Assembly (NCBI RefSeq): GCF_000186245.1 | Contig: NC_014935.1 | Coordinates: 744,001 to 808,000, forward strand | Source of the DNA: Nitratifractor salsuginis DSM 16511 | GTDB taxonomy: Bacteria; Campylobacterota; Campylobacteria; Campylobacterales; Sulfurovaceae | Reading direction: 5' to 3' | DNA length: 64,000 nucleotides | Shown here: one piece after another, positions 31,729 through 41,523 of the stretch | How positions within the stretch are numbered: the first letter of the stretch is position 1 | Layout of the letters: each line of letters starts with the position of its first letter | Made by a program: the position numbers and the translations under genes | Notes under the pieces: generated by a model | Seen by the model: only the letters and a program-made list of their open reading frames with translations | What the model was told of the DNA's origin: nothing | Databases searched by the model: none

Positions 31729-31819
31729 GGAGAGATGGCAGAGTGGTCGAATGCGGCGGCTTCGAAAGCCGTTGTCCGGGCTTCCCGGACCGGGGGTTCG
31801 AATCCCCCTCTCTCCGCCA
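31729..31819 (+). tRNA. tRNA-Ser (anticodon CGA)
   Basis: The sequence folds as a class II tRNA: acceptor GGAGAGA/TCTCTCC, anticodon stem GCGGC/GCCGT with loop TTCGAAA, long variable arm (TGTCCGGGCTTCCCGGACC) and T-arm GGGGGTTCGAATCCCCC. CCA is encoded (31817-31819). Its 3' end is repeated at 36139, marking an integration site. Confidence 0.95.
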
Positions 31820-31828
31820 CCCAACTTT
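31793..31828 (+). repeat. left 36-bp direct repeat (att-like) in tRNA-Ser
   Basis: It starts GGGGTTCGAATCCCCC and ends CACCCAACTTT; identical to 36139-36174. Confidence 0.85.
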
Positions 31829-31875
31829 GTATCAACTATATTGACGGCTTCGAAATCTTCTCGCTAAAATCAGCT

Positions 31876-32508
31876 ATGTCTATGAATAAAAAACTATTTC
31901 TACTCATGATCTGGGGGATCGCCTTCGGCTATATGGAAGCGGCTGTGGTGGTTTACCTGCGGGCGCTCTACTATCCCGAGGGCTTCACTTTTCCCCTCAA
32001 ACTCATCAGCGGAACTATTATGTGGACCGAGATCGGCCGGGAGGCGGCGACTTTGGTGCTGATGGCGGTGACGGTGATGTTGGCCTATGATCGTTTCCAG
32101 AGCCGTTTCGCGGCTTTTGCGGTGCTCTTTGGAGTCTGGGATATCTTCTACTATCTCTTTCTTTGGCTCATCCTGGGCTGGCCCGAGAGTCCAAAGACCT
32201 GGGATCTGCTTTTTCTCATCCCCTTACCCTGGGTCGGGCCGGTTTGGGCGCCGGTGCTGGTTTCGCTCGGATTGATCGGTGTGGGAAGTGCCGTTCTGAC
32301 GCTCAATGCCCGCAGGCGCTATCCCCATTTCAGCAAAGGTTTTGTAGTGACGGAAACAGTGGCGGGGTTGATGATCGTTGCCTCGTTCCTGCTCTCGGGA
32401 CGCAATATTGCTGTGACTGGAATGCCCGAACCCTTTCTCTGGCCGCTGTTTCTGGCGGGTTTTTTGTTGGGGGTTGGGGCTTTTTTCTATAGCATCAGGA
32501 AGAGATAG
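31876..32508 (+). CDS. polytopic membrane protein, intact copy 1
   Basis: The 210-residue protein has about six hydrophobic helices (for example LFLLMIWGIAFGYMEAAVVVY, AAFAVLFGVWDIFYYLFLWLILGW, LVSLGLIGVGSAVLTL). I do not recognise its family. The frame is open back through the tRNA, but the ATG at 31876 is the first plausible start; a second ATG lies two codons later. A second, broken copy is at 36225-38069. The last 289 bases of similarity (32196-32484) are identical between copies, whereas the preceding 245 bases differ at about 16 positions. The C-terminal residues (FFYSIRKR) differ from those of copy 2 (FHLALMKR). Confidence 0.75.
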   Translation: MSMNKKLFLLMIWGIAFGYMEAAVVVYLRALYYPEGFTFPLKLISGTIMWTEIGREAATLVLMAVTVMLAYDRFQSRFAAFAVLFGVWDIFYYLFLWLILGWPESPKTWDLLFLIPLPWVGPVWAPVLVSLGLIGVGSAVLTLNARRRYPHFSKGFVVTETVAGLMIVASFLLSGRNIAVTGMPEPFLWPLFLAGFLLGVGAFFYSIRKR

Positions 32509-32559
32509 TGATTCGGCATAGTAGATCTCGGTATGCTTGAGTCCCTGCGGTTTCCATCC

Positions 32560-34000
32560 GGCTGCGCAAACAATAATAGGGGCAGTCTGTTTTCAAAAGG
32601 CGCGTCGGAGATATTGACCTATGAAGCGGACGAGAAATAGACAGGTAAAGTTCGAAACAGACACCGTCGCACATAAACCTAAGCTCTTTTTGCATGAAAG
32701 CTCTCAAGAGGGCGATGATCTGGATCAGATCGGTATTCTCCTTGACACAGGTATCGATTTGTATGAGTTTTGTCAGAATCTCAAGAAAGCGCTGCATGGA
32801 GATGGCCAATACCTCAAATTCGCATTTGTAGATTCCTGAAGAGTTCTCCCAGTGTTTGGGGTTCGTGCTGAAGTCGATTGATGGTGGTGACCAGATTGTA
32901 GGTGAATAGGTGAATATGGAGAGTCTTATCCGGGCAATGAGCGCTTCATAAAGTCGGTTTTTCCTCCTTGCCCAGACCGAAATGTTCCCTGAGGTCTTTG
33001 TACCCCTGTTCGATATTCCACCGTTTTTTGTAGGTCTCGATCATCGCTTTGCCTGAAAGCGATGATCGGCACTGATGAAGATGATAAGCTCTTTGCCCGT
33101 ATGCAGGAAAAGGAGTTTGACTCTGCCAAGTAACTGATGTTCGGCGATCACGGTAGTAAATCTTTCTATGGGTACCGTAATGTTTACGGTGGTTGTTTTT
33201 ATGATGATGTAAAGAGCCTGAAGCGATTTGTATTTACTCTTGAAATGCCAGAGGCGGTTAGTGTTGGCAATCCGGGCAATGACAGGTAAACTCATTGCAT
33301 TGGCCTGATGAATGAAATCGGGTTTGGCATACCAACTGTCAATAAGTAGATAATCTGCCACAATCCCGGCATACAAAGCATGTTCCAGTATTTCGAGCGC
33401 AAGAAGATTTTTATCCCTGAGCCCCTCTTTGCATCGTTTGAATGCATTGCTGCGGTGGTGGAGACTTTGTGAAAAATCGGCCAGTTTCTTGTGACGGCTT
33501 GTATTGAGTCGCAAGGCGAAGTCTAACTGGAAAGTGGAATGGCTGTCGGCATAATTGAGCGAAACATTATTGAGGCTGCTAATGAGACGATGCTCCTTAT
33601 TGCTCCAAAGATACCGGCAGCCTCCCTCGATCTGTTTACCGCGTTTGGGTTCAACCGTATCGTCGATGATCAGTAGACGCTGCTCCCCTCTACGATGTAA
33701 GGGATCTATCTTTGCAATGAGCATCACGGCACTCAGCAATAACAGTTTGCGCCAGTTAAAACGGTGCTTCTTAAGAAAACGGTAGTAGATATCCTTTCCA
33801 AAGGCATTCCCAGGCTTTATTTGATGAAAGAGGATTGGCGTTTATGCTAAAGAAGCATATAGACAAAATGCAACAGCACCCAATAGGGAGCAAAGCCGAC
33901 AGAACGCTTGGTGAAGTTTGCCTGTCTGAGCACTGAAGAGATACCTATCTCACACAGCAGGGAAGAATCAGGTTTGTTAGTACGCCTCTTAACGCAGATT
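32560..34000 (-). pseudogene. decayed IS4-type transposase
   Basis: On the minus strand the remnants of a DDE transposase can be followed from about 34000 to 32560 through several frames. They are CEIGISSVLRQANFTKRS, GKDIYYRFLKKHRFNWRKLL, LLIIDDTVEPKRGKQIEGG (first Asp), YLLIDSWYAKPDFI (second Asp) and the Y-x-x-R-W-x-I-E motif in ETYKKRWNIEQGYKDLREHFGLG. The C-terminal parts follow (TYNLVTTINRLQHEPQTLGELFRNLQ; ISMQRFLEIL). The longest intact stretch is 33041-33739. At least four frameshifts or stops interrupt it, so it cannot act. No clear terminal inverted repeats were found. Confidence 0.75.
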
Positions 34001-34162
34001 CGATATACTTCTCAAGCTCCAAAAATTGGTCCTTTTCGCAATGTGTGTGGTTACAAAGTGTCTTTTTATGGGCTTTCTCTGATGGATTTATCTCTGAAAT
34101 CTATGTGAGAAAGTTGAGTTTATGTAGATAAACTGATGTAAAAATAATAAGGAGATTTTATA

Positions 34163-35977
34163 ATGGAAGAAAAAAAAGAAAATGATATGAACTTTATCAT
34201 CAATTTAAAAAACGAAATAGAATTGGATATACAAAAATTAGTATACAGATTGGATACAAATGGATTGATCAAATTTATTCTAGTAATGTTTGAAAATGAA
34301 TTATTTAATCAAGAATATGAAAAAAATCAGGCAAATTTATTTTATAAAGAAGATATTTCGGAAGAACTTTCATATGTTTTATATTTAAAGTTAAATCATT
34401 TTAATAAAAAATTAAATCTATTAAAAATAGAGAATATAGATTATATAAAGTTTGTTAAGAAAAATAATGAAATATTAAATCAGTTGTTGGAGCTATTAAA
34501 AGCTAGAAGTATAATTCGTGAAATGGATATATATATTACAAAGCAAGGATATACATTATCTATTGTTAATAATGTCATTTCTGTGGAGCATCCAATAAAA
34601 AACTTTCAACATTATTATCAAATGGGATATTTGAGAAATACATTGGAGAATATTACAATTGGTTTTAATGTATATGATGAAAAAGAAATAAAGTTTGAAA
34701 ATATGTCAGAGTCTTTTAATGAGCATTTATTTAAATTAACGAAAATAATTGATTATGAGATAAAATACCATAGATCTGTGAAAGAAGCAATTATATTTAG
34801 GATAAATCCACAAGGATTAGCTAAATTGCATAGAATTCTGACTGATGAGCATGATATGAGGTATAATCAAATAATGAGTAAATACCTTGATAATATAGGT
34901 ATGAATATTAATGACAAGTGCACCAAAAAGGGAAATTTAAAATGGATTGATCTTGTGTTTTTCTCAATTGTTTTACAATATTTAGTGACATATATGAATA
35001 AAATCATTGATGAGAAATCTACAAGTGAAAGAATGAAAATTAACTCTAAGGTACACCTGATGAGTAATTCGTATAAAGGTGATTTTTTCTATACAATATT
35101 ACATGATATAAATTCTGAAATAACACAAAAAGATGTGCAAGCATTTTTGAGTAAGTTTTCTACAAATATAGAAAAAGTATCTGGAAGAATAGACTTACAA
35201 TTTATGCCTATAGTTAAAGCAAAGGAGTTTAGCTTTATACTCTTTAATACTTTTTCTATGGTTGATCTTGCCCGTGCGTATATTAAAAATTTTGATATTG
35301 CATTGGATGATCAAGGGAAAAAATTCGAAAATGTTGTTTTAAAGGTATTGTCGAAGCACTTTGATAATATTCATTCAAGTATTAAATATAAAGACAATGA
35401 TAATAAGGAAGGCGAAATTGATATTTGTATTATTGGAGATAAGAATATATATTTTATTGAATGTAAAAATAATTTACATCCGATCTCTGCTTCAACAGCA
35501 TCAACAAACTATAAAAATTTTTTAAAATCTACAGAACAAGTTGAGCAATCAGAAAACTATTTTAATATGGATAGAAAAGGTTTTTTGAAAAAGCATTTAA
35601 AAATAGAAATTGACAATATTGAGGAATATGTTGTCCATAAAGTAGTAATCATGTCAAATCGAAATATTTCAGGTTTGAATTATAAAGGAATTTCATTCCG
35701 CGATATATATAGCCTGGATAAGCTGCTAGATGATGGTGTTTTAAAAGAATATACTAGAGTTCCAGGTGAGTCAAAAAAATTAGAAAAAAAAATATATATG
35801 TATAAAAATAGAACAGATTTCAATGAAATAGATTTTCTTAATTATTTATCTGAAAAATCGATTTATTTTGAAGTTCTTAATGGGTTAGCTAAAAAAATTT
35901 ATAATGAGGCAAAATATAAGCAATATATTCTAAGAGAGTCAATGTATGCATTTGATCTCATTGAACCAAGAAATTGA
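34163..35977 (+). CDS. AT-rich PD-(D/E)XK nuclease-like protein, candidate defence factor
   Basis: The 604-residue protein has a much lower GC content (about 27 percent by eye) than the surrounding genes. Residues ~1-380 are rich in Lys, Asn and Ile, mostly helical, with no motif I recognise. Residues ~385-500 form a restriction-endonuclease-like core: the leading glutamate in GKKFENVVLKVL (~389), the aspartate in GEIDICIIGD (~419) and E-x-K in IYFIECKNN (433-435), followed by a conserved-looking helix (QVEQSENYF). This is the catalytic triad of PD-(D/E)XK nucleases of the NERD/Mrr-like kind. A good AAGGAG site precedes the ATG. It is alone in a tRNA-linked island, as many phage-defence genes are. 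The target and activity are unknown. Confidence 0.7.
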   Translation: MEEKKENDMNFIINLKNEIELDIQKLVYRLDTNGLIKFILVMFENELFNQEYEKNQANLFYKEDISEELSYVLYLKLNHFNKKLNLLKIENIDYIKFVKKNNEILNQLLELLKARSIIREMDIYITKQGYTLSIVNNVISVEHPIKNFQHYYQMGYLRNTLENITIGFNVYDEKEIKFENMSESFNEHLFKLTKIIDYEIKYHRSVKEAIIFRINPQGLAKLHRILTDEHDMRYNQIMSKYLDNIGMNINDKCTKKGNLKWIDLVFFSIVLQYLVTYMNKIIDEKSTSERMKINSKVHLMSNSYKGDFFYTILHDINSEITQKDVQAFLSKFSTNIEKVSGRIDLQFMPIVKAKEFSFILFNTFSMVDLARAYIKNFDIALDDQGKKFENVVLKVLSKHFDNIHSSIKYKDNDNKEGEIDICIIGDKNIYFIECKNNLHPISASTASTNYKNFLKSTEQVEQSENYFNMDRKGFLKKHLKIEIDNIEEYVVHKVVIMSNRNISGLNYKGISFRDIYSLDKLLDDGVLKEYTRVPGESKKLEKKIYMYKNRTDFNEIDFLNYLSEKSIYFEVLNGLAKKIYNEAKYKQYILRESMYAFDLIEPRN

Positions 35978-36138
35978 TATTTTAATTTGAATACATATAC
36001 GGTTATTCAGCAACTGTCAGTTGATTTGTCAGTAACTAACGTTCATTATCTACTGATATTCATATTTTTTTGATACAATAAACAATAATAAAGTCCTATA
36101 CTACGGGGGTTAGAGCTATTCCACTGCTAGCTATCCGA
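35978..36138. other. AT-rich spacer at the right end of the island
   Basis: No gene is seen. The composition changes from AT-rich to GC-rich near 36110-36140, close to the right direct repeat. Confidence 0.5.
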
Positions 36139-36174
36139 GGGGTTCGAATCCCCCTCTCTCCGCCACCCAACTTT
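36139..36174 (+). repeat. right 36-bp direct repeat (tRNA-Ser 3' end)
   Basis: It is identical to 31793-31828 and contains only the T-arm and acceptor end of tRNA-Ser, so it cannot form a complete tRNA. Confidence 0.85.
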
Positions 36175-36337
36175 CTTTTATCAACTATATTGACGGCTTC
36201 GGAATCTTCTCGCTAAAATCAATTATGTCTATGAATAAAAAACTATTTCTGCTCATCATCTGGGGGATTTTTCGGCTATATGGAAGCGGCTGTGGTGGTT
36301 TACCTGCGGGTATAATGACCCCTCCCTTTCTGCACAC

Positions 36338-37156
36338 CTAAGCCGCTAAACGAAATACCTCTGCCGGTGTTTTGTATCGCAGCGCCGAATGTTTGCGCTT
36401 TTGGTTGTAAAAGTCGATCCAGTCTCCGATGATCCGATTGGCCTCCTTAAGCGATTTGAAATTGTGGTGCCAGATGCACTCTTCTTTGATCGTTCGGAAG
36501 AATCGTTCGATCATACCGTTCTGTTCCGGAGTGTAGGGAGTGATGAACTCCTGAATAAAATTGTAGTCTTTGACCGTTTTGGTGAAGGACTTACTACTGA
36601 GGACAAGCCCGTTGTCACTTCGAAGGGCTATAGGCTTTCTCAGCCGCTTAAGTTGGCCAAATCGATAGATCAATCCCTCCTGCAAAGCCGCTTCCGCTGT
36701 TTTCGTCTTGCCGCTTTTTGAGAGTCTCCACCCTACGATCTCCCGGGTACAGGTATCGATGACACAGGCTAGGGTTCCCCATCCTTCCTGGGCACTCCAA
36801 ACTCTGGTCATATCGATGGCCCATCTTTGATTGGGATATTGTGAGCGTGAGGGCATCATTTGGGCCCTTGGCCTGTGGCCTTTTGCTCGTTTTCTCACCT
36901 GCCAGCCTTTGAGCTGTAGAATCCGCTGAACCGCTTTCTTGTTCATCCCCAGCAGTAGAGCCAGACGCCGATAGCCGTAGGTAGGGAACTCCTCGATCTT
37001 CTCTTGAACCTTTCGCACACGCTCTTCATCTACTCTTGGAGTTCTCTCGATCGGTTTGTAATAAAAGCTCCTACGAGGGATTCCAAACAGACCGCAGAGT
37101 TTCGTGATGCTGATGGGATGCCCTTCCTCTCTCATTTCGCTCCGAACCCGCATCAC
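36338..37156 (-). CDS. IS3-family transposase OrfB (integrase core)
   Basis: The 272-residue protein has the N-terminal HTH_21-like region (YGYRRLALLLGMNKKAVQRIL) and the rve core with DDE residues: Asp in RWAIDMTRVW, Asp in LRSDNGLVL and Glu in NGMIERFFRTIKEE, with the usual 35-residue D-E spacing. It overlaps orfA by 4 bases at a GTGA. An AAAAAAG heptamer (37183-37189, minus strand) in the 3' part of orfA is followed by an orfB frame that is open upstream, so a -1 frameshift would yield an OrfAB fusion, the active transposase in this family. Confidence 0.93.
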   Translation of the reverse strand: MMRVRSEMREEGHPISITKLCGLFGIPRRSFYYKPIERTPRVDEERVRKVQEKIEEFPTYGYRRLALLLGMNKKAVQRILQLKGWQVRKRAKGHRPRAQMMPSRSQYPNQRWAIDMTRVWSAQEGWGTLACVIDTCTREIVGWRLSKSGKTKTAEAALQEGLIYRFGQLKRLRKPIALRSDNGLVLSSKSFTKTVKDYNFIQEFITPYTPEQNGMIERFFRTIKEECIWHHNFKSLKEANRIIGDWIDFYNQKRKHSALRYKTPAEVFRLAA

Positions 37157-37461
37157 TTCTTCTCTCCGAACAGAGCGTCGTACTTTTTTAGGGCGATATT
37201 CTCCAGGGTCAGCTCACCGATGACAGCTTTCATCTCTTTGATCTCCTCTTCGTACTGAGCGGCGATATCTTTAGGCCGTGCCCGCAATTGATTCTCCATT
37301 CCCCGACGGGCCTCATCCATCCACTCTTCTACGGTAGCGGGGGTCAAATCATACTTACGGGAAACCTCGGCGATGCTGGTCTTTCCCTGGAAGATATCCA
37401 TCACAATTTGTGCCTTTTTCTTGGCGGTAAAACGTTTGATCTCATTAGCCCCTTTTTCCAT
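37153..37461 (-). CDS. IS3-family transposase OrfA (HTH_Tnp_1)
   Basis: The 102-residue protein has an N-terminal helix-turn-helix (FTAKKKAQIVMDIFQGKTSIAEVSRKYDLTPATVEEW) that would bind the terminal repeats, and a C-terminal leucine-zipper-like helix (EEEIKEMKAVIGELTLEN). The slippery AAAAAAG lies about 12 codons before its stop. Confidence 0.92.
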   Translation of the reverse strand: MEKGANEIKRFTAKKKAQIVMDIFQGKTSIAEVSRKYDLTPATVEEWMDEARRGMENQLRARPKDIAAQYEEEIKEMKAVIGELTLENIALKKYDALFGEKK

Positions 37462-38082
37462 ACTGTCACTCCTGTATTCCTTGCATTATACATTGTGCAG
37501 TCGGGCTGGGGGTCAGTATACGGGCGCTCTACTATCCCGAGGGCTTCACTTTTCCCCTCAAACTCATCACGGGAACGATTATGTGGACCGAGATCGGCCG
37601 GGAGGTGGCGACTTTGGTACTAATGGCGGTGACGGTGATGCTGGCCTATGATCGTTTCCAGAGCCGTTTTGCGGCTTTTGCAGTGCTCTTCGGAGTCTGG
37701 GATATCTTCTATTACATTTTTCTTCGGCTCATCCTGGGCTGGCCCGAGAGTCCAAGGACCTGGGATCTGCTTTTTCTCATCCCCTTACCCTGGGTCGGGC
37801 CGGTTTGGGCGCCGGTGCTGGTTTCGCTCGGATTGATCGGTGTGGGAAGTGCCGTTCTGACGCTCAATGCCCGCAGGCGCTATCCCCATTTCAGCAAAGG
37901 TTTTGTAGTGACGGAAACAGTGGCGGGGTTGATGATCGTTGCCTCGTTCCTGCTCTCGGGACGCAATATTGCTGTGACTGGAATGCCCGAACCCTTTCTC
38001 TGGCCGCTGTTTCTGGCGGGTTTTTTGTTGGGGGTTGGGGCTTTTCATTTGGCTTTGATGAAGCGATAGTCACAGAGGCTTC

Positions 38083-41000
38083 TCAGCTCTGGAGCTGCTC
38101 GGCTAACCTCCTGGCCCCTTTGAAGTCGGCTTTGCCGCTGGCGAGTTTGGGAAGAGTTTCGACTTGATAGACGGAGTCGGGCCGCATAATGGGGGGCAGG
38201 TCAGAGGTTTTGATCCTCTCGATGAGCTCCTCGGGGGCGATCTCTCCGCTGTAGAGCAGGACGATCCGCTCTCCCTTTTTTTCGTCGGGGAGGGCCACGG
38301 CGGCCAGTTCGATCCCTTCGCCCAGCAGTGCGGCGAGCTTCTCCTCCACAGCACCCAGGCTGATCATCTCTCCGCCGATCTTGGCGAAGCGGCTGTAGCG
38401 GTCGACGATGGTGATGAAGCCGTCTTCATCGAGGTGCCCTTTGTCCCCCGTCTTGTAGTAGCGGACTCCGTCGATTTCGGCGATCACTTCGGCGGTCTTC
38501 TCCGGGTCGCGGAGGTAGCCTTTCATCACCTGCACCCCGGCGACCATAATGAGACCGTCCTCACCGGTGGGGAGTTCCTCCAGGCTTTCGGGGTCGCTGA
38601 TGCGGATCAGGGTGCCGGGCAGGGGCTGGCCCACGGTGCCGGGGCGGTTGCCCTGGATCACCCGGAAGGTATCGGGATCGAGCCTGTCGGGCATATTGAC
38701 CGAGATCACCGGAGAGGTCTCGGTGGTGCCGTAACCCTCGTAGAGTTCCACGCCGAACTTGGCCCGGAAGGCCTCTTTGATCTCGGGCTTGAGCTTTTCG
38801 GCCCCGGCGACACCCATACGGATGGAGGCGAACATCAGGGGGTGCAGTTTGCGGTTACGGGCGTAGAGGCGGAAGAAGGTGGAGGTCCCAAAGAGGATCG
38901 TCGCCCCGTAGCGCGCCGCCATCTTGCCCACGCTGAGGGCATCGGTGGGATCGGGGACGGCCGCCACGGGGATCCCTTCGCAGAGCGGCAGCAGGGTGGT
39001 CACCGTCAGCCCGAAGCTGTGGAAAATCGGCAGCGATCCCAGGATCAGGTCATCGTCGCTGAAGTTGAGCATGGCGCTGACCTGTTTGATGTTGCCCAGG
39101 AGGTTGCGGTGGCTCAGCTCGATCCCTTTTGGAGTCCCTTCGCTCCCGCTGCTAAAAAGGATGGTCGCCGTCTCCTCCAGCGTCACCGGCTCGAAATAGA
39201 GCGCCCGGATCCAGGAGGCGGGCAGGAGCAGGGCCCGGGCCATCGCCAGCGCTTTGGATCGGGTATCGAAGCCTTTACCTACCGTCTCGGCCATCAGCAG
39301 GCGCTCCCCCAGGAGTGCGGCGGGGTCGAAGCCTTTGGCGGAGAGCTTTTTGAGGAATTGCTCGGAGCTGATCACGGTCTGGAGCCCGGCCCGATCTACC
39401 GCCGCCTCCATCGCTTCGGCGGAGAGAGTGTAGTTGAGATTGACGGGGCGTTTGCCCAGGGCCATCAGCGCCAGGTTGACGATGCTGCCCGCGGCGGAGG
39501 AAGGCAGCAGTACCCCCACATTCTTCTGGTCTTTGAGCGCAGGTTTGAGCGCTTTGATGAAAAGGAGCACGGCGGTGAGCAGCTGCACGCGGTTGAGGTC
39601 GGTGCCGGAGGCGTCGGCGACGGCCCGCTCGAAGGGGTGCTCTTTGCAGCGGCGCAGCCACTGGAGGTGCAGAGGCTCCTGCCGGTCGATGGTCTGGTCC
39701 CAGGCACGGAAGGAGAGGGAGCGCACCGCCTGCTTGACCCGGTCGGCCCTGGCGTCGGAGGGTAGCGGCGCACCGAACCAGACCCCGAGCTCCCGGCGGG
39801 CGCCGTGGCGGGAGACCAGGCGGTAGCGGGGGTTGGCCCGGGAAAAGGTCGAGCCCCAGAGGCCGTGGAGGTAAAAGGGGACGATGGGCACGTCGCACGC
39901 CTCCATCACCTTTTCGAAGCCCCTTTTGAATTCATTGAGTTGGCCGTTGTAGCTGATACGCCCCTCGGGAAATAGGGCCACCACCTCTCCGGCGTCCAGA
40001 CGCCTGCGGATTGCTTCGATGGCCCCTTTGGAGGCGGAGCCCGAGATGGGAATCATATCAAACCACCGCAAAAACCAGCGCAGATACCACTGCTCGTAGA
40101 TCCGTTTCTCCATTACGAACTTGATGGTGCGGGGGCTGGCGACCTGGAGGATGAGCCAGTCGATCCAGCTGATGTGGTTGCCCAGCAAGAGCACGCCCCC
40201 CTTGGGAGGGAGGTGCTCCAGCCCCTCCACGCTGAGGCGGTAGCGGGTGCGCAGCAGGGGCAGCAGCAGGAGCCTGGCCCCCAGCTGGGGCAGCTGCAGC
40301 AGGGCATAGACCGCCGCCGCGAGGGTGAGCCAGGCGGAAGTATGCAGGATCCCCAGGGTCGAGAAGCCCGTCCAGACCATCAGGATGGTTCCCAGCAGGG
40401 CGGCGAGCATCGCCAGGTTCTGGACGAAGTTGCTGCCGGCGAGGATCACCCCCAGCTTCTCCAGGGGAGCCAAAAACTGCACCGTGGCATTCAGCGGCAC
40501 GATGGCCAGCCCCCCGAAAAAGCCGAAGGCCAGGGTGGCTACCCCCATCCAGAAGGGGGTGGCGGAGGCGGCTAGGAGCGTCAGGGAGGCAAAGAGCCCG
40601 AAGGCTCCCAGGGGGACCAGCCCCAGCTCGATGTGCAGCCGGCTGAAGCGTCCGGCCACGAGGCTGCCCAGGACGATCCCCACGGCGCTCAGGGCCAGCA
40701 GCCCCTGGATCATCACGGTGTTGTCGTCGCCGGTGAGGAGCTTGTAGTGGGTGGGGAAAGCGGCGATGATGAGCTGCGAAAGGCCCCAGAAGACGGCCAA
40801 ACCGACGATGGAGAGCCAAATGTTCCGGTCGCTTTTGAGGGTGGAGAGGTTGCGGCGCAGGTACTCCAGGCGCAGGTAGCGGCCCAACTCGAAGAGTTCC
40901 CGGTTTGCTTCGCCCGTGGAGGGGATGCGCCGGGCAAAAAGATACTCCATGCCGCTCATGAGGATGAGCCCCCACCCCAGGGGTGCCACGGAGCGCAGAA

Positions 41001-41523
41001 CGTTACCGGAGGCACGGCTGCCATCGTAGAGCCCTTCGAAGACCCACGAGAAGAGAAGGCCGCTGACGAGGATCGCCGCGATGGTGAGGGCCTGGACCAG
41101 GGCGTTGGCCGCCGCCAGCCGCTCGGTGCCCGCCAGGTGCCGGATGAGGGCGTATTTGGCGGGGGAGTAGAGGGCACTCTGGACCGCCAGGAGCAGGGTC
41201 ATCCCAAAGGCGGCGACGAACCAGCCCTGATAGTAGGACAGGGTCGCCGCCACGGCCAGGAAGAAGCCCGCCAGGGCCATCCCCCGGACGATGCGGCTTT
41301 TGTCGAAGCGGTCGCTGAGCCAGCCCGAGGGGGAGAAAAATAGGATAAAGGGCAGAAGGATCAGGGCGTTGACCAGGGCGCTGAGAATCAGCAGAGTATC
41401 GCCGGAATAGCTCTTGATGAGGACGTTTTGGATGGTGATCTTGTGGGCGATGTCGGTCATGGCATTGAAGACCAGCACCAGCAGAAAGGGGGCAAAACCC
41501 CTCAGGCTCAGCAGCGTTTTCAT
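38083..41523 (-). CDS. aas: LplT-like MFS / PlsC acyltransferase / acyl-CoA (ACP) synthetase fusion
   Basis: The 1146-residue protein joins three modules: an N-terminal MFS transporter of about 12 helices (residues 1-405) like LplT, which flips lysophospholipids inward; a PlsC-type 1-acyl-glycerophosphate acyltransferase domain with GNHISWID (H-x4-D, near residue 455) and FPEGRISYNG; and an AMP-binding synthetase domain with ILFSSGSEGTPKGIELSH near residue 790 and YKTGDKGHLDEDGF. In E. coli, LplT and Aas are separate proteins acting together in lysophospholipid repair, so the fusion puts uptake, acyl activation and re-acylation in one chain. It is translationally coupled to an upstream MerR regulator (ATGA overlap). 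Confidence 0.92.
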   Translation of the reverse strand: MKTLLSLRGFAPFLLVLVFNAMTDIAHKITIQNVLIKSYSGDTLLILSALVNALILLPFILFFSPSGWLSDRFDKSRIVRGMALAGFFLAVAATLSYYQGWFVAAFGMTLLLAVQSALYSPAKYALIRHLAGTERLAAANALVQALTIAAILVSGLLFSWVFEGLYDGSRASGNVLRSVAPLGWGLILMSGMEYLFARRIPSTGEANRELFELGRYLRLEYLRRNLSTLKSDRNIWLSIVGLAVFWGLSQLIIAAFPTHYKLLTGDDNTVMIQGLLALSAVGIVLGSLVAGRFSRLHIELGLVPLGAFGLFASLTLLAASATPFWMGVATLAFGFFGGLAIVPLNATVQFLAPLEKLGVILAGSNFVQNLAMLAALLGTILMVWTGFSTLGILHTSAWLTLAAAVYALLQLPQLGARLLLLPLLRTRYRLSVEGLEHLPPKGGVLLLGNHISWIDWLILQVASPRTIKFVMEKRIYEQWYLRWFLRWFDMIPISGSASKGAIEAIRRRLDAGEVVALFPEGRISYNGQLNEFKRGFEKVMEACDVPIVPFYLHGLWGSTFSRANPRYRLVSRHGARRELGVWFGAPLPSDARADRVKQAVRSLSFRAWDQTIDRQEPLHLQWLRRCKEHPFERAVADASGTDLNRVQLLTAVLLFIKALKPALKDQKNVGVLLPSSAAGSIVNLALMALGKRPVNLNYTLSAEAMEAAVDRAGLQTVISSEQFLKKLSAKGFDPAALLGERLLMAETVGKGFDTRSKALAMARALLLPASWIRALYFEPVTLEETATILFSSGSEGTPKGIELSHRNLLGNIKQVSAMLNFSDDDLILGSLPIFHSFGLTVTTLLPLCEGIPVAAVPDPTDALSVGKMAARYGATILFGTSTFFRLYARNRKLHPLMFASIRMGVAGAEKLKPEIKEAFRAKFGVELYEGYGTTETSPVISVNMPDRLDPDTFRVIQGNRPGTVGQPLPGTLIRISDPESLEELPTGEDGLIMVAGVQVMKGYLRDPEKTAEVIAEIDGVRYYKTGDKGHLDEDGFITIVDRYSRFAKIGGEMISLGAVEEKLAALLGEGIELAAVALPDEKKGERIVLLYSGEIAPEELIERIKTSDLPPIMRPDSVYQVETLPKLASGKADFKGARRLAEQLQS

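What the first reader, a model, noticed from the sequence alone, without database searches (positions are those of the whole stretch)
31793..36174. 4.3-kb island bounded by a 36-bp tRNA-Ser(CGA) direct repeat without an integrase
The last T-arm and acceptor bases of tRNA-Ser plus 9 bases recur perfectly at 36139. This is the signature of site-specific integration, but no tyrosine or serine recombinase is present between the repeats. The element may be a relic, mobilised in trans, or created by duplication.
Basis: partly seen in the sequence, partly recalled or inferred. Interest (0 to 1): 0.65.

Follow-up and report, generated by a model that had tools for sequence, protein, structure and literature searches.

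The report
Integrase-less tRNA-Ser island with duplicated gene
A short stretch of foreign DNA carrying one putative nuclease gene sits behind a serine tRNA gene in a bacterium, framed by two diverged copies of the tRNA end plus a neighbouring gene, and looks like an ordinary decayed genomic island whose insertion enzyme is missing.

Summary
The 36-bp repeat is real (31793-31828 = 36139-36174) but is only the left edge of a ~0.7-kb direct duplication: tRNA-Ser(CGA) 3' end + ~50 bp + a ~209-aa membrane-protein gene. Copy A (31793-32508) is intact. Copy B (36139-36310 + 37521-38069) is frameshifted and split by a separate IS3-family insertion with a 4-bp target duplication. Between the copies lie an IS4/IS701-type transposase remnant and a 25%-GC ORF (34163-35977) with a NERD nuclease domain. 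No recombinase lies between the repeats; the genome's five tyrosine-integrase matches and one resolvase match are over 400 kb away. The copies are a mosaic: dS 0.22/dN 0.03 on the left, then 289 identical bases, then 50%-identical tails. They look like diverged functional alleles later homogenised by gene conversion, not a fresh duplication. Genome length matches Nitratifractor salsuginis. In a congener the same tRNA-Ser-to-acyltransferase interval holds 17 kb of defence-type genes, with no integrase found and no repeat. Best reading: a decayed integrase-less tRNA island (CIME-like) accreted onto a resident tRNA-Ser/gene locus; a RecA-type single crossover in the 0.7-kb homology is the main rival. 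The empty site could not be tested. Known kind; modest interest.

The parts
31729..31819 (+). tRNA-Ser(CGA), complete gene, left end of the locus
   Evidence: ARAGORN; Rfam RF00005; only complete copy in the genome
31793..31828 (+). left copy of the 36-bp perfect repeat (T-arm + acceptor + CCA + 9 bp)
31793..32508 (+). duplicated unit, copy A: tRNA 3' end, ~50 bp, intact gene
31876..32508 (+). gene A, ~209-aa membrane protein (HlyIII similarity below the curated cut-off)
   Evidence: homologs at 55-60% in the family
32196..32484 (+). 289-bp stretch of copy A identical to copy B (37757-38045): likely gene-conversion tract
   Evidence: run test, 6 of 200000 random placements
33041..33739 (-). 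remnant of an IS4/IS701-type DDE transposase, about half of the model
   Evidence: no other DNA copy in the genome
34163..35977 (+). AT-rich 604-aa ORF with NERD (nuclease-related) domain at residues 385-495; putative cargo, possible defence gene
   Evidence: relatives
36139..36174 (+). right copy of the 36-bp perfect repeat
   Evidence: no further tRNA similarity to its left
36139..36310 (+). duplicated unit, copy B, left piece (2-nt deletion shifts the frame of gene B)
36311..37520 (-). IS3-family element (orfA 37153-37461, orfB 36338-37156), inverted ends, 4-bp TSD CGGG; second copy at genome 2017943
37521..38069 (+). duplicated unit, copy B, right piece (gene B, pseudogene), ends 13 bp before the stop of the convergent MFS-acyltransferase gene
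38083..41523 (-). MFS/acyltransferase/AMP-ligase gene, right chromosomal flank

Best explanation
The locus is a decayed, integrase-less tRNA-Ser(CGA) island. A resident locus [tRNA-Ser - gene B - acyltransferase gene] received, at the tRNA 3' end, a DNA segment or circle from a close relative that carried [tRNA-Ser 3' end - allele A of the same gene - IS remnant - AT-rich NERD nuclease gene]. The T-arm/acceptor core is duplicated because the incoming piece brought its own tRNA 3' end and so restored the tRNA. The recombinase was supplied in trans or was lost from the island (CIME-like accretion). Afterwards gene B was frameshifted and hit by an IS3 element, and the two copies exchanged a ~290-bp tract by gene conversion. 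Shown: the anatomy, the divergence mosaic, the foreign composition, the absence of a local integrase. Inferred: the order of events, the site-specific step, the donor, and any defence role of the NERD gene.
For: 36-bp perfect repeat with one edge inside the tRNA T-arm and no tRNA similarity to the left of copy B. The core is followed by a diverged allele of a whole gene, dN 0.031/dS 0.223 over 234 nt, i.e. divergence while functional. A 289-bp identical run, 6 of 200000 random placements, then 24-nt tails 12 of 24 identical with the same stop: a conversion tract. Cargo 24.9% GC vs 55.5%, with relatives only at 36-42% identity in 3 other genomes of the order. The gene is patchy: in G002, and as a decayed copy in G001, the homolog sits beside a DUF2231 gene, and that locus in the own genome lacks it. 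The interval tRNA-Ser to acyltransferase is 17 kb in G001, with RhuM/Fic, AAA_21, type III R-M-like and Abi_2 genes. Integrase-less islands bounded by repeats of an RNA-gene 3' end are documented: 31 ssrA islands detected in Dehalococcoides, 15 of them without integration module (PMC3146451, passages); CIME definition and accretion in PMC5704250 (passages).
Against: No integrase on the island, and no PF00589 match on any contig carrying a tRNA-Ser(CGA) copy (97% or better) among the genus genomes, so no recombinase for this site is known in the genus; the contigs are short, so the test is weak, and serine recombinases were sought in the own genome only. A ~0.7-kb repeat including a whole gene is not what a single integrase event makes. 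No third core lies to the right of copy B. G001's insertion in the same interval has no repeat of the tRNA end, so DNA can enter there without one. No empty site was found.
Confidence: 0.47

Rival explanations
1. Homologous, integrase-free insertion: a non-replicating circle (or transformed DNA) from a sister strain carrying the tRNA-end/gene segment next to foreign DNA recombined by a single RecA-type crossover in the 0.7-kb homology, giving the direct duplication around the foreign DNA.
For: Explains the whole 0.7-kb duplication, the allelic divergence and the missing integrase without any recombinase. The conversion tract indicates that the copies recombine with each other.
Against: Does not by itself explain why the homologous segment begins sharply inside the tRNA T-arm.
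Confidence: 0.32
2. In-situ tandem duplication of the tRNA end + gene, followed by insertion of IS elements and the NERD gene between the copies and later divergence.
For: Both copies are in direct orientation at one locus and nowhere else in the genome. Relatives G003 and G006 each carry two tRNA-Ser(CGA) copies, so duplications of this tRNA occur in the genus. IS elements or remnants are present in and beside the copies.
Against: dN/dS ~0.14 at dS 0.22 needs both copies to stay functional for long, whereas copy B is now a pseudogene. The last 24 nt differ at 12 positions next to 289 identical bases, which an in-situ duplicate does not predict without further recombination.
Confidence: 0.18

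Closest known systems
CIME (cis-mobilizable element) / tandem accretion at tRNA genes (review PMC5704250, passages read)
   Same: Repeat-bounded segment at a tRNA 3' end, no integrase or transfer genes seen, foreign cargo
   Different: Here the repeat extends 0.7 kb through a gene; no related ICE/IME or integrase for the site is known; no accretion partner identified
ssrA genomic islands without integration module in Dehalococcoides (PMC3146451, passages read)
   Same: Islands bounded by an RNA gene and a direct repeat of its 3' end; insertion at the T-loop; many members without integrase
   Different: ssrA, not tRNA-Ser; 20-bp repeats; integrase-bearing siblings exist there, none known here; no gene duplicated together with the repeat is described in the passages read
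tRNA-linked defence hotspots (general knowledge; here compared with the G001 interval)
   Same: Variable defence-type genes next to a tRNA gene; the same interval in G001 holds type III R-M-like, Abi_2 and RhuM/Fic genes
   Different: Only one candidate gene here, and its defence role is untested

Membership tests
tRNA-associated integrative element / genomic island | Direct repeat of the tRNA 3' end at the distal boundary | tested here: met
   36 bp exact at 31793 and 36139
tRNA-associated integrative element / genomic island | Integrase encoded within the element | tested here: not met
   No tyrosine or serine recombinase among the island's ORFs; five PF00589 and one PF00239 match elsewhere in the genome
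tRNA-associated integrative element / genomic island | Foreign composition | tested here: met
   34111-36138 24.9% GC vs window 55.5%
tRNA-associated integrative element / genomic island | Empty site in close relatives | tested here: inconclusive
   No close strain held; genus relatives have unrelated DNA after tRNA-Ser
CIME | att-bounded, integration and transfer genes lost | tested here: inconclusive
   Repeats present and no integrase; no transfer gene among the ORFs scanned; but that such genes were once there is not shown
CIME | att sites mobilisable by a related element | not testable with these tools
   Needs an excision assay; no related integrase identified
NERD-domain nuclease | PF08378 match above the curated cut-off | tested here: met
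   29 bits vs cut-off 22.1, residues 385-495
Known anti-phage system (PADLOC) | Convincing match to a PADLOC-DB model | tested here: not met
   Only CARF_PDDEXK at E 0.21

The most novel reading that the evidence does not exclude
The two 0.7-kb copies, kept alike by gene conversion, act as an integrase-free cassette frame: homologous recombination between them deletes or swaps the cargo, and the cargo is a new single-gene NERD-nuclease phage-defence protein that moves among Campylobacterota as a lone AT-rich gene.
Probability: 0.12. Interest if true: 0.55.

Novelty: new member of a known kind. Interest (0 to 1): 0.3.

Why it matters
It shows that a short tRNA repeat without an integrase can be the visible edge of a longer allelic duplication with gene conversion, which changes how such 'orphan' islands should be read. 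It also flags the tRNA-Ser(CGA)/acyltransferase interval of Nitratifractor as a variable site with defence-type genes, and a small family of AT-rich NERD proteins worth a simple phage-challenge test.

Tried and rejected
A 36-bp-only att repeat was rejected: the homology runs on through the gene. A second, decayed full tRNA left of copy B was looked for by anchored alignment against tRNA-Ser(CGA) and not found; in the same call the comparison with the tRNA at genome 42426 used that gene's reverse strand and so says nothing. The local alignments agreed before that script stopped on an error in a later step. A sub-threshold Rfam hit to an antisense tRNA-Ser-like plastid family left of copy B rests mostly on the conserved T-arm; 8 of 11 further letters match, so a trace of an older tRNA cannot be fully excluded. 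Truncation of gene B before its stop was considered and dropped because both tails have the same length and stop. That copy A's tail looks more like the homologs' tails than copy B's was noted but decides no order of events.

Searches that led nowhere: NERD protein in phages (no match), viral contigs (none), genome contigs with the single sequence (none), PDB by sequence (none); plasmids gave 3 records at ~24% identity over ~42% of the protein. Membrane protein in plasmids and viral contigs: none. The AlphaFold model of the NERD protein from 2 sequences was useless (mean pLDDT 32.5), so no fold search was run. The other papers were seen as listings only.

Full report
Identity of the window. 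The window is bases 744001-808000 of a single 2,101,285-bp contig. That length equals the published genome of Nitratifractor salsuginis E9I37-1T (PMC3156401, passages); the species name rests on this match alone.

Observation. tRNA-Ser(CGA) lies at 31729-31819. The 36-mer starts at 31793 and 36139 and nowhere else in the window. The similarity goes on: in the own genome the query tRNA+gene gives four matches, namely itself, a 93% piece (query 74-244), a 97% piece (query 241-765) and a 72% match to another tRNA-Ser. Copy B is cut at 36310/37521 by an IS3-family element with orfA and orfB, with ends TATAATGACCCC / TATACTGACCCC and a CGGG target duplication, and a 92% copy elsewhere in the genome. 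So the repeated unit is tRNA end + ~50 bp + gene, about 0.7 kb.

Mosaic of the two copies. After the 36 identical bases the rest of the first piece has differences scattered through it (161 identical of 175 aligned columns in all). In the second piece 16 of 524 positions differ, all in the first 235; the remaining 289 are identical, a run reached in 6 of 200000 random placements. The last 24 nt, stop included, are identical at only 12 positions (10 of the last 12; shuffle p 0.0115). In the 234-nt diverged coding part dN is 0.031 and dS 0.223; 14 codons differ, 9 of them silently by the listing. I read this as two alleles that diverged while functional and then shared a conversion tract. Copy B is now frameshifted and interrupted.

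Content between the copies. 33041-33739 (-) is about half of an IS4/IS701-type transposase, without another DNA copy in the genome. 34163-35977 encodes 604 aa with a NERD domain (29 bits, cut-off 22.1); 34111-36138 has 24.9% GC against 55.5% for the window. PADLOC gives no convincing match. Relatives: 1 of 174 other genomes in the family (G060, 37%; contig length and position agree with Sulfurovum sp. clone C5) and 2 of 397 other genomes sampled in the order (G494, G348), at 36-42% identity. In G494 the homolog is next to a RhuM gene and a RhuM-Fic gene, families also found in the G001 interval below. A defence role is therefore plausible, but only by association.

Recombinases. The own genome has five PF00589 matches, the nearest 430 kb away (1206031 against 775729), and one PF00239 match at 2056573. 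In the genus (13 genomes, own included) no PF00589 match lies on a contig that carries a tRNA-Ser(CGA) copy of 97% identity or more, apart from the own closed chromosome (searches compared); many of those contigs are short. Serine recombinases were not sought in the relatives.

Neighbourhood in relatives. Five of 13 genus genomes, own included, have a close homolog (74% or more) of the right-flank acyltransferase. Besides the own genome only G001 has tRNA-Ser and that gene on one contig, 17 kb apart. The interval holds an AAA_21 ATPase, RhuM/Fic and Fic proteins, a helicase/res-like protein, a DNA methylase, Abi_2 and a restriction endonuclease domain, and no second copy of the tRNA end at up to 4 mismatches. 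Elsewhere in the genus tRNA-Ser(CGA) has different 3' flanks. The duplicated gene is rare in the genus: own, G002 (59%) and a 46% fragment in G001; in 9 other genomes of the family, all of one other genus, it is 55-60% identical. In G002 and G001 it lies beside a DUF2231 gene, while the own genome's DUF2231 gene (734891) is followed directly by the next conserved gene. So at tRNA-Ser the gene is probably an arrival, not an old neighbour. This weakens the picture of gene B as a plain ancestral flank, and leaves open that both copies came in with islands.

Mechanism. The favoured account is a decayed integrase-less island accreted onto a resident tRNA-Ser/gene locus, with the recombinase in trans or lost. 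The main rival is a RecA-type single crossover in the 0.7-kb homology; in-situ tandem duplication is third. The T-arm edge favours a site-specific step at some time; the long homology and missing integrase favour homologous recombination. The data at hand do not settle this. Published parallels are ssrA islands without integration modules (31 islands detected, 15 without; PMC3146451, passages) and CIMEs (PMC5704250, passages).

Verdict.

Noticed in passing
G001:C17 (L037 5303-20000, L038 1-2290): 17-kb interval between tRNA-Ser(CGA) and the acyltransferase gene with AAA_21, RhuM/Fic, type III R-M-like, Abi_2 and endonuclease genes: a defence-type hotspot.
   Followed up: partly
L046/L047 (G003), L048/L049 (G006): Two relatives carry two complete tRNA-Ser(CGA) genes each, and the tRNA sits in different gene contexts across the genus.
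   Followed up: partly
L055 601-695 and ~880 onward (G000:C1:1764009): A tyrosine integrase (395-aa frame) lies just downstream of tRNA-SeC in the same genome, a likely separate integrated element.
   Followed up: no
L087 2344-7170, L081 7974-9755: NERD-protein homologs next to YjbR-type genes; in L087 (23% GC gene) also next to RhuM and RhuM-Fic genes.
   Followed up: partly
window 36311-37520: IS3-family element in copy B; second 92% copy at genome 2017943 and a fragment near 357.4 kb.
   Followed up: partly
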